NCBI GenBank assembly: GCA_946410505.1
Contig: CAMKAP010000083.1
Coordinates: 1 to 8,462, forward strand
Reading direction: 5' to 3'
Length of the DNA stretch: 8,462 nucleotides
Source: an uncultured Clostridia bacterium
GTDB lineage: Bacteria; Bacillota_A; Clostridia; Oscillospirales; Oscillospiraceae
Shown here: piece after piece, positions 1 through 1,524 of the stretch
Numbering within the stretch: position 1 is the stretch's first letter
Layout of the letters: every line of letters begins with the position of its first letter
Notes under the pieces: model-generated
What the model saw: the letters and a program-made list of their open reading frames with translations, nothing else
Databases searched by the model: none
Told to the model about the DNA's origin: nothing
Made by a program: the position numbers and the translations under genes

Positions 1-57
1 GGCTACATCGTCCCCGGTCTGGGCGACGCGGGCGACCGTATCTTCGGCACCAAGTAA
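1..57 (+). CDS. upp: Uracil phosphoribosyltransferase, C-terminal end (partial)
   Basis: Only the last 18 codons and the TAA stop are inside the window; the gene begins upstream. The visible peptide, GYIVPGLGDAGDRIFGTK, is the highly conserved C-terminus of uracil phosphoribosyltransferase. In this family the GLGDAGDR stretch helps form the uracil-binding pocket. The enzyme is a cytoplasmic pyrimidine-salvage protein that makes UMP from uracil and PRPP. The tail ends at the family's usual place, so the 3' end looks intact. The following 290 bases contain two terminator-type hairpins, so upp is probably transcriptionally separated from the next gene. Confidence 0.93.
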   Translation, partial: GYIVPGLGDAGDRIFGTK

Positions 58-75
58 CAATCTGTTTTCTGACGG

Positions 76-109
76 ATCGGCAGGGCGTTTGCACTGCCGC
101 TTGCAGTGT
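76..109 (+). repeat. Imperfect hairpin, first copy of a duplicated terminator-like unit
   Basis: A stem forms between 78-86 and 91-99 around a GTTT loop, with one G/A mismatch in the middle. The sequence from 76 is about 80% identical to 255-288 and has the same loop. Unlike that second copy it is not followed by a T run, so as a terminator it looks weaker or decayed. It lies 20 bases after the upp stop codon and may still help end the upp transcript. Confidence 0.55.
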
Positions 110-141
110 TTCGACAAAGTCTGCACAAGCGAAAACAGAAT

Positions 142-228: not shown

Positions 229-251
229 GGAGCGAGGTTTGTCAACAGTCT

Positions 252-290
252 GCAATCGGCAGGGCGTTTGCCCTGCCGATTGCATTTTGT
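252..290 (+). terminator. Rho-independent terminator-like hairpin (second copy)
   Basis: A perfect 14-bp stem pairs 252-265 with 270-283 around a GTTT loop and is followed by ATTTTGT. This is a good intrinsic terminator on the plus strand, most simply the terminator of upp, although it lies about 195 bases after the upp stop. It shares its core with the weaker hairpin at 76-99. The candidate -35 box of the next gene overlaps its 3' arm. Confidence 0.65.
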
Positions 291-348: not shown

Positions 349-1524
349 ATGGAAACCTTGATCGAACTCTATGACCAACGGCCGCTGGAAAATGTGCTGG
401 GCGTGGAGATGTTCCGCCCGAAGCGCGCGGTCTATATCTGCCCGGAGAGGGCCGCCCGGGACACGGCGCTTCAAAAGAAGATGCGGGCCTATTTCAGCCA
501 CAGGCAGCAGCGCACGGAGCTTATTTTTTTCAAGGCCGACGTCTATGACGCCTCCTCCGTGCTGACGCTGCTGCAGAGCATCGTCTCCCGCTATCCCGAC
601 TGTGCCATAGACATCACCGGCGGCACCGACGCCGTCCTGTTCGCGGCCGGTCTTCTCAGCGCGGAGACGCCTATTCCGGTTTTTACTTACAGCCGGAAAA
701 AGAACTGCTTCTACAACATCCGCAATGCGGATTTTGCCGACGGCGTCGTCTGCTCCCTCCGCTATCCGGTGGAGGATTTCTTTCGGATGGCCGGCGGCTC
801 CGTGCGGGAAGGGCGCGTGAGTAACGCGCTGCTGGAGCGCTATCTGCCGGACTTCGACCCCTTCTTCGAGGTGTATCTCCGGCACCGGAGGGACTGGGTG
901 AAGATCGTCACCTATCTGCAGCGGCTCTCCCCTGCCTCCGACGAGGGGGTCTTTTCCCTGGAGGTCAGCGGACCCTATACGGTAAAGGGAGAGCGCGGCG
1001 CCCGGATCGACGCGCCGGAGTCCGCTCTGCGCGCGCTGGAGGAGATCGGCTTTCTCCGCGCCCTGCGCATCACGCCCGAGAGCGTCTCCTTCCGTTTCCG
1101 GGACGGGCAGATCCGCGCCTGGCTGCGGGACGTGGGCAGCGTACTGGAGACCTATGTGTACAAAGCCTGCCTGGATACGGGCCTCTTTGACGATGTGCGC
1201 CTGAGTGTGATCGTGGACTGGGAGGGTGAAAACAATGCAGGCTCCGTCTCCAACGAGCTGGACGTGATGTGCTCCCGGGGCGTGGTGCCGCTCTTCATCA
1301 GCTGCAAGACCTGCGACGTGAAGACTGAGGCGCTCAACGAGCTGGCCATCCTGCGGGACCGCTTCGGCGGCCAGATGGCCCGGGCCGCCATCGTCACCGC
1401 CGAGCGTGCAAACGCCCTGGTTCGCAGCCGGGCCTCCGAGCTGAACATCCAGGTCATCGACCTGAGCGATCTTGCATCCGAGAAGCTGCAGGCACGCCTG
1501 AAGCGCTGCATGAGCGCAAACTGA
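349..1524 (+). CDS. CARF-DUF1887 protein, Card1/Can2-like putative cyclic-oligonucleotide-activated nuclease
   Basis: 391 residues, predicted cytoplasmic. The N-terminal half (about 1-140) fits a Rossmann-like CARF domain: it opens with PLENVLGVEMFRPKRAVYI and carries the ligand-loop motif DITGGTD at 88-94. A linker or winged-helix-like middle follows (about 150-255). The C-terminal part (about 260-385) matches the DUF1887 PD-(D/E)XK nuclease fold: LETYVY near 266-271, NELDVM at 302-307 with candidate catalytic D305, and FISCKT at 316-321 with candidate K320, then LNELAILRDRFGG. Known relatives (Card1, Can2) bind cyclic tetra-adenylate from type III CRISPR Cas10 and then cut nucleic acid. No cas gene or array is visible here, so the activator is unknown. 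The position two before K320 is S318, where many PD-(D/E)XK enzymes have Glu. The ATG at 349 is preferred because the upstream open frame only translates repeat DNA. It probably shares a transcript with the hydrolase 27 bases downstream. The family is secure; activity is inferred. Confidence 0.85.
   Translation: METLIELYDQRPLENVLGVEMFRPKRAVYICPERAARDTALQKKMRAYFSHRQQRTELIFFKADVYDASSVLTLLQSIVSRYPDCAIDITGGTDAVLFAAGLLSAETPIPVFTYSRKKNCFYNIRNADFADGVVCSLRYPVEDFFRMAGGSVREGRVSNALLERYLPDFDPFFEVYLRHRRDWVKIVTYLQRLSPASDEGVFSLEVSGPYTVKGERGARIDAPESALRALEEIGFLRALRITPESVSFRFRDGQIRAWLRDVGSVLETYVYKACLDTGLFDDVRLSVIVDWEGENNAGSVSNELDVMCSRGVVPLFISCKTCDVKTEALNELAILRDRFGGQMARAAIVTAERANALVRSRASELNIQVIDLSDLASEKLQARLKRCMSAN

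What the first reader, a model, noticed from the sequence alone, without database searches (positions are those of the whole stretch)
349..1524. Card1/Can2-like CARF nuclease with no CRISPR system in view
The protein has a CARF ligand motif (DITGGTD) joined to a DUF1887 nuclease domain. Characterised relatives are activated by cyclic tetra-adenylate from type III CRISPR complexes. Here it sits after upp in a two-gene unit with a hydrolase, and no cas gene, Cas10 or repeat array is seen within 8.4 kb. It may be served by a distant type III locus, use a signal from another cyclase, or have a housekeeping role.
Basis: partly seen in the sequence, partly recalled or inferred. Interest (0 to 1): 0.7.

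Follow-up and report, generated by a model that had tools for sequence, protein, structure and literature searches.

The report
CRISPR-free CARF nuclease, moved active-site acid
A gut-bacterium gene encodes a small-molecule-sensing nuclease of the kind used by type III CRISPR immunity, but its relatives mostly live without such a CRISPR system, have a changed sensor pocket, and appear to have moved a catalytic acid to a new place.

Summary

Two changes were not in the finding. (1) The Lys of TGGTK, a cA4 contact in Can2, is Asp in 164 of 164 close homologues, Lys/Arg in 78 of 78 Can2 relatives. (2) The ExK glutamate, essential in Cdn1, is Ser; a Glu appears on the next helix in 66 of 68 Ser proteins and 0 of 79 Glu proteins, like the acid migration of Cfr10I/NgoMIV.

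Best reading: an active stand-alone ligand-gated nuclease, ligand probably not Cas10 cA4. Ligand, activity and role are untested. Orphan DUF1887 proteins were known (VC1899); this is a new variant.

The parts
349..1521 (+). 391-aa CARF--PD-(D/E)xK (DUF1887/Card1_endonuc) protein; stop codon 1522-1524
349..723 (+). N-terminal CARF (Rossmann) domain, about residues 1-125; CARF structures (Csm6, Cam1, Csa3) align to 1..125-128
   Evidence: boundary approximate
610..630 (+). DITGGTD ligand-loop motif, residues 88-94; D94 replaces the Lys of TGGTK
   Evidence: codons placed by arithmetic from ATG 349
694..696 (+). R116, at the alignment position of Can2 Ser121 (a cA4 contact)
1135..1476 (+). PD-(D/E)xK nuclease domain, Pfam stretch residues 263-376
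1147..1149 (+). E267, aligned with a conserved Glu of the family
1252..1263 (+). N302-E303-L304-D305, metal-binding acids (Can2 E276/D278; Cdn1 E308/D310)
1300..1308 (+). S318-C319-K320, variant of the ExK half-motif (ECK in Can2, Card1, VC1899)
1339..1341 (+). E331 on the following helix (model helix 326-339), proposed relocated catalytic acid
251..284 (+). perfect 15-bp inverted repeat followed by TTTT between upp and the CARF gene; terminator-like, so the gene is probably transcribed apart from upp
   Evidence: reading as terminator is inference

Best explanation
A stand-alone, ligand-gated nuclease of the CARF-DUF1887 family that works outside CRISPR. Shown: CARF plus PD-(D/E)xK architecture and whole-length fold; invariant catalytic-type residues; purifying selection; no RAMP gene in 51 of 52 orthologue genomes tested and no SMODS match in the carriers among 400; solitary gene without shared neighbours. 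Inferred: (a) the protein is a homodimer whose two CARF domains enclose a nucleotide-like ligand, as in Can2, but the pocket (D9, D94, R116 at the places of D20, K99, S121 of Can2) is tuned to something other than Cas10-made cA4, made by an enzyme not yet identified; (b) binding closes the nuclease dimer; (c) the nuclease cuts nucleic acid with a permuted PD...K...E site, in which S318 gave up the acid of ExK and E331 on the next helix supplies it; (d) the outcome is a dormancy, stress or anti-phage response. My weights: CARF-nuclease family 0.97; not dependent on type III 0.9; still a metal nuclease with the relocated Glu 0.75; ligand not cA4 0.6; defence or stress rather than core metabolism 0.6.
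For: Fold and family. Independence from CRISPR: RAMP family PF03787 in 1 of 52 orthologue genomes, 4 of 14 controls ringing; csm3 0 of 28; in 400 family genomes csm3 matches in 11 (4 over cut-off), none among the 30 close-orthologue genomes; SMODS in 7 of 400, none among the 50 genomes with any match. Solitary: no immediate-neighbour cluster in more than 3 loci (43 upstream and 45 downstream neighbours of 47 orthologue loci). Selection: dN/dS 0.069-0.223 in five pairs, a sixth saturated. Relocated acid: among 147 aligned proteins 79 of 79 with E318 have no Glu at 328 or 331, and 66 of 68 with S318 have one, 53 at 331 and 13 at 328 (unweighted for relatedness, a few near-duplicates included); on a 144-row tree built without these columns 4 changes at 318 and 4 of the helix acid, the same way in 2 or 3 of 3 supported independent pairs, never the opposite way. 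The Glu that S318 replaces is essential in Cdn1 (E323A abolishes activity; PMC12825302 section 22), and CCGG-family restriction enzymes carry the acid on the next helix (passages of PMC6344858, PMC4652773, PMC551604). Pocket: position 94 Asp in 164 of 164 close homologues, Lys/Arg in 78 of 78 Can2 relatives.
Against: No activity, ligand or metal binding is shown. The Ser/helix-Glu variant also occurs with a basic residue at position 94 and in 6 of 78 Can2 relatives, so it is no mark of CRISPR independence. One orthologue genome (G407) has a real type III locus, which the csm3 model missed, so csm3 counts are low estimates. Completeness of the searched genomes is not told. Three independent pairs cannot reach significance. 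VC1899, an orphan relative and the best fold match, has only weak RNase activity not regulated by cA4 (PMC7969007). The link to defence rests on family resemblance: neighbours are not a defence island.
Confidence: 0.55

Rival explanations
1. An ordinary type III ancillary effector acting in trans: cA3/cA4/cA6 from a Cas10 elsewhere in the genome activates it.
For: Whole-length relationship to Can2, Card1 and Cdn1. One orthologue genome, G407, carries a type III locus with arrays and a Cas10 palm2 domain on another contig.
Against: 51 of 52 orthologue genomes (1.2-4.8 Mb) show no RAMP match; the TGGTK Lys is Asp. The Cas10-like ORF of G407 shows no GG[DE][DE] tetrad by pattern, while those of G551 and G718 do; but that of G537, beside its own CARF gene, shows none either, so this is weak. 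Only two ORFs of the G407 locus were profile-scanned; whether it holds its own CARF gene was not tested.
Confidence: 0.1
2. A degenerate relict cast adrift from CRISPR, as proposed for VC1899, with no present catalytic function.
For: Ser in place of the essential ExK Glu and lost Lys in the pocket; VC1899, its best fold match, is nearly inactive.
Against: D88, D94, E303, D305, S318, C319 unchanged in 164 of 164, E267 and K320 in 163 of 164; low dN/dS; 2902 homologues at E<=1e-3 among the 7998 candidates scored; helix Glu present where the strand Glu is lost.
Confidence: 0.15
3. A non-nuclease: the site binds metal or nucleic acid for regulation, or the protein acts as a ring nuclease on its own ligand.
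For: CARF ring nucleases appear among the fold matches of the CARF part; the C-domain motif is altered.
Against: All residues of a permuted PD...K...E site are kept.
Confidence: 0.12
4. A metabolic or housekeeping partner of upp or the hydrolase (nucleobase salvage).
For: Adjacent to upp and an alpha/beta hydrolase in the window; UPRTase in 2 of the 71 neighbour proteins of set A3.
Against: No recurring immediate neighbour; patchy presence (42 of 81; 50 of 400); hairpin between upp and the gene.
Confidence: 0.05

Closest known systems
VC1899 (PDB 1XMX), orphan DUF1887 protein of Vibrio cholerae
   Different: VC1899 keeps ECK and has Lys at the helix position, and its pocket is described as unfit for cA4; ours has SCK with helix Glu and an internally invariant pocket
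Can2 / Card1 / Cdn1 (7BDV, 6WXW, 9U49)
   Same: CARF plus PD-(D/E)xK, NELD acids, catalytic Lys; dimeric ligand-gated mechanism inferred by homology
   Different: TGGTK Lys is Asp; ExK Glu is Ser with a Glu on the next helix; no RAMP genes in 51 of 52 carriers tested; Pfam CARF_Card1 model does not fire
CCGG-family restriction endonucleases (Cfr10I, NgoMIV, BsaWI)
   Same: Acid of (D/E)xK relocated to the helix after the Lys strand, with two alternative helix positions about a turn apart (NgoMIV E201; BsaWI D175, overlaying NgoMIV N197; here 331 and 328)
   Different: Related at most through the common nuclease core; spacing KX12-13E there, K+11 or K+8 here; known to me only from passages of papers
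Kinase--DUF1887 fusions of about 1400 aa in the same bacterial family (L078, L080, L082)
   Same: C-terminal DUF1887-type nuclease; their active-site pairs obey the same Ser/helix-Glu or Glu/Lys rule
   Different: N-terminal protein kinase (PF00069) matching PD-T4-6 defence profiles; middle part looked RyR-like by eye only, no Pfam match there

Membership tests
CARF--PD-(D/E)xK effectors (Can2/Card1, DUF1887) | N-terminal CARF fold | tested here: met
   PADLOC CARF4 profile over 1-388; structural alignment to Can2, Cdn1, Card1 and to Csm6 CARF. Pfam CARF_Card1 not reported at E<=0.1
CARF--PD-(D/E)xK effectors (Can2/Card1, DUF1887) | C-terminal Card1-like endonuclease domain | tested here: met
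   PF09002 46.7 bits, cut-off 26.4
CARF--PD-(D/E)xK effectors (Can2/Card1, DUF1887) | Canonical ExK half-motif | tested here: not met
   S318 in 164 of 164 close homologues; Glu in 72 of 78 Can2 relatives
Type III-dependent Can2/Card1 | TGGTK lysine contacting cA4 | tested here: not met
   D94 in 164 of 164; K/R in 78 of 78 Can2 relatives; contact list from PMC7969007 section 21
Type III-dependent Can2/Card1 | Gene linked to a type III CRISPR locus | tested here: not met
   no cas gene among six other window ORFs, no array
Type III-dependent Can2/Card1 | Type III locus in the same genome | tested here: inconclusive
   own genome not held; in relatives RAMP genes in 1 of 52 orthologue genomes
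Type III-dependent Can2/Card1 | Activation by cyclic oligoadenylate | not testable with these tools
   needs purified protein
Orphan DUF1887 proteins (VC1899-like) | DUF1887 architecture without CRISPR association | tested here: met
   at the level of the family, own genome untested
Permuted PD...K...E nucleases (CCGG type, by mechanism not by descent) | Lys kept, strand acid lost, Glu on the next helix | tested here: met
   sequence level: S318, K320, E331, helix 326-339 in the model
Permuted PD...K...E nucleases (CCGG type, by mechanism not by descent) | Relocated Glu lies at the metal site | not testable with these tools

The most novel reading that the evidence does not exclude
A large clostridial family of single-gene, CRISPR-free, second-messenger-gated nucleases: the CARF pocket has been re-tuned (Lys to Asp) to a ligand that is not a Cas10 cyclic oligoadenylate, and the nuclease uses a permuted active site in which the glutamate has moved from strand to helix, an exchange that arose more than once in DUF1887. 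It would imply an unknown messenger and synthase in gut Oscillospiraceae.
Probability: 0.35. Interest if true: 0.78.

Novelty: new variant of a known kind. Interest (0 to 1): 0.55.

Why it matters
CARF proteins are usually explained by type III CRISPR signalling. Here is a widespread group that keeps an invariant sensor pocket and an invariant, re-wired nuclease site while mostly having no type III system to serve, which makes the question 'what do orphan CARF nucleases sense?' directly testable with one 391-aa protein. The coupled Ser/helix-Glu rule also predicts which DUF1887 proteins may be active although they lack the textbook ExK motif, and would stop them being written off as dead.

Tried and rejected
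Type III in trans: searched with PF22335, TIGR02582 and PF03787. PF22335 matched in 7 of 28 genomes, 1 over the cut-off (G020). Of the eight loci returned, six hold a GGDEF-type motif by pattern in one of their three longest ORFs; L029 and L035 do not, and L029 of G020 is an unresolved palm-domain protein. TIGR02582 misses the G407 type III locus that PF03787 finds.

SMODS (PF18144) as alternative signal source: 7 of 400 genomes, none overlapping; other cyclase families were not searched.

SCK as a mark of CRISPR independence: rejected. In the class sample S with K is found in 26 of 29 proteins, two of its carriers (G551, G718) hold RAMP genes on other contigs, and it occurs in 6 of 78 Can2 relatives.

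Operon partner or defence island: 143 neighbour proteins (positions -2 to +2) of 42 of the 47 orthologue loci gave no Pfam family in more than 3 members and no PADLOC family in more than 2 (only the 25 commonest Pfam families are listed per set). Five loci were left out (window, near-duplicates, a fragment); the script kept only proteins of 70 to under 1300 aa, 147 in all, and I left out four more for length. Within 8 genes of 67 loci, remote relatives included, the largest cluster recurs in 10 loci at scattered places.

Vertical core gene: distances of the protein and of rpoB correlate only in part over 24 genomes (Spearman 0.38, Mantel p 0.01; rpoB found in 27 of 30 genomes, 24 used), with clear conflicts (G407/G013).

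Phage or plasmid carriage: no match in 50,697 phage and 72,556 plasmid records.

A first gene caller lost many genes of the GC-rich loci and was replaced, which still lost the focal gene in L015 and L091. Rfam: no match in the window. A pattern of the intergenic segment: no match in 216 loci.

Not held: Makarova 2020 CARF classification and Burroughs 2015. I therefore cannot say that the Ser/Glu exchange is unpublished; the listings did not show it.

Full report

Distribution. 2902 proteins reach E<=1e-3 among the 7998 candidates scored. Of the 120 listed, four bear a name: three are DUF1887 family proteins of Oscillospiraceae bacteria, one a hypothetical protein. 28 GTDB genomes gave loci, by their titles Oscillospiraceae, Ruminococcaceae and other Clostridia, many from sheep, goat and other animals. 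In the family of the nearest genome (G024, 88% identity) 50 of 400 genomes have a match, 30 of them close orthologues at 46% identity or more; in its genus 42 of 81. Completeness is not told, so absence is overcounted, but half presence inside a genus seems more than incompleteness would give (inference). No phage or plasmid record carries it.

CRISPR. The window's own genome is not held. csm3 (TIGR02582): 0 of 28 orthologue genomes; in 400 family genomes 11 matches, 4 over the cut-off, none among the 30 close-orthologue genomes; G316 (over cut-off) and G394 (weak) have remote matches to the protein, G316's being a kinase fusion. RAMP superfamily PF03787, more sensitive: of 108 genomes that I listed, 80 could be given; 1 of 52 orthologue genomes (G407) and 3 of 28 class-sample genomes matched, with 4 of 14 controls ringing. 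G407 has a true type III locus: CRISPR arrays, Cas10 palm2 (E 3.5e-10) and RAMP; its orthologue is on another contig. Cas10 palm2 itself (PF22335) matched in 7 of 28 genomes, 1 over the cut-off, six of eight loci holding GGDEF-type motifs. SMODS cyclases: 7 of 400, none with any match to the protein. So type III is not the family's usual partner; a rare meeting is possible.

Neighbourhood. Among the immediate neighbours of 47 orthologue loci no cluster recurs in more than three; a same-strand gene within 60 nt or overlapping is upstream in 12 of 43 and downstream in 4 of 45. Within 8 genes of 67 loci, remote relatives included, the largest cluster is in 10 loci at scattered places. 143 proteins at positions -2 to +2 of 42 loci match no Pfam family in more than three members, mostly metabolic and transport families; PADLOC matches at E<=1e-10 never exceed two members per family. 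UPRTase is in two of the 71 proteins of set A3. A perfect 15-bp hairpin followed by T's lies between upp and the gene. The gene is solitary. Gene and rpoB distances agree only in part over 24 genomes (Spearman 0.38, Mantel p 0.01), which with the patchiness suggests transfer and loss (inference).

Constraint. dN/dS (Nei-Gojobori) is 0.069-0.223 in five close pairs, a sixth being saturated; both domains are constrained. In 164 proteins (the query and 163 homologues) D88, D94, E303, D305, S318, C319, E327, A328 and E331 never vary and E267, K320 and R116 vary once each.

Pocket. In Can2 the side chains that touch cA4 are S19, D20, T42, K99, Y118 and S121 (PMC7969007 section 21). By the alignment these fall at Y8, D9, about C31/P32, D94, T113 and R116 here (read off by eye). 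K99 is Lys/Arg in 78 of 78 Can2 relatives and Asp in 164 of 164 close proteins. All 30 members of alignment A1 are Asp or Glu there; the class sample is mixed. A conserved but altered pocket argues for a conserved but different ligand (inference).

Active site. Cdn1 needs E308, D310 and E323, with E274 and K325 in the same network (PMC12825302 section 22). I equate these with E303, D305, S318, E267 and K320; E303/D305/S318/K320 follow the motif, E267 is by analogy. The Glu of ExK is thus gone. In 70 aligned C-domains Ser at 318 goes with Glu at 331 (49) or, where 331 is Lys (13), with Glu at 328; the 8 with Glu at 318 have Lys or His at 331. I then looked at 78 Can2 relatives fetched afterwards: 72 have E318 and none of them has Glu at 328 or 331; 6 have S318 and 5 of them have E331. 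In all 147 proteins: E318 without helix Glu 79 of 79; S318 with helix Glu 66 of 68; the exceptions are L194, which also lacks the Lys and whose helix column shifts with the alignment, and P0238, with Asp 328 and Gln 331. These are counts of sequences, not of events. On a 144-row tree built without these columns both traits change 4 times; independent pairs never disagree in direction but are too few for significance. The same relocation defines the CCGG-family restriction enzymes: PD...K...D/E, PDX21-53KX12-13E, with BsaWI using a helix position about a turn from NgoMIV's (passages of PMC6344858, PMC4652773 and PMC551604). I conclude that the nuclease is more likely active than dead; geometry and activity are untested.

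Place among known things. VC1899 was already described as an orphan CARF protein not associated with type III and perhaps cast adrift (PMC7969007 discussion), and a 2025 CRISPR classification notes the abundance of CARF homologues outside CRISPR (PMC12669027, passages). So the orphan state is known. What I did not find in the listings named is a CRISPR-free family with an invariant altered pocket, or the Ser/helix-Glu exchange in CARF nucleases; Makarova 2020 could not be read.

Side lead. Remote relatives in the same bacterial family are about 1400-aa proteins with an N-terminal protein kinase (PF00069 in L078, L080, L082; PD-T4-6 profiles by PADLOC) and the DUF1887-type nuclease at the C-terminus; both active-site variants occur among them. 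This is the only domain context I found that points toward defence.

Noticed in passing
L078:6956-11194, L080:6800-11014, L082:3350-7537 (and L079:3353-7531, not profile-scanned): About 1400-aa fusions of an N-terminal protein kinase (PD-T4-6-like) with a C-terminal DUF1887-type nuclease, the middle looking RyR-like by eye; a candidate defence architecture.
   Followed up: partly
L081:6659-9547, L083:6908-9802: About 960-aa proteins with a C-terminal DUF1887-like domain; L081 (only Pfam match a weak Card1_endonuc) has S-A-K instead of S-C-K.
   Followed up: partly
L211 (G407), L212 (G537): Type III loci with fused RAMP ORFs and Cas10 palm domains in which no GG[DE][DE] tetrad was found by pattern; in L212 a CARF_Card1 gene lies directly upstream, with S-C-T where ExK should be.
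   Followed up: partly
L029 (G020) 826-2379: 518-aa protein whose only Pfam match is the Cas10/Cmr2 palm2 domain, just under the cut-off, in a genome without a RAMP match; possibly a minimal Cas10-like polymerase.
   Followed up: no
window 76-105 and 255-284: Two 30-nt copies (93% identical) in the segment between upp and the CARF gene, the second a perfect hairpin; perhaps a small intergenic element.
   Followed up: partly
P0189, P0194, P0200, P0229, P0233, P0238: Can2 relatives with Lys at position 94 but Ser at the ExK Glu, five with Glu at 331: further occurrences of the acid relocation among Can2-like proteins.
   Followed up: partly
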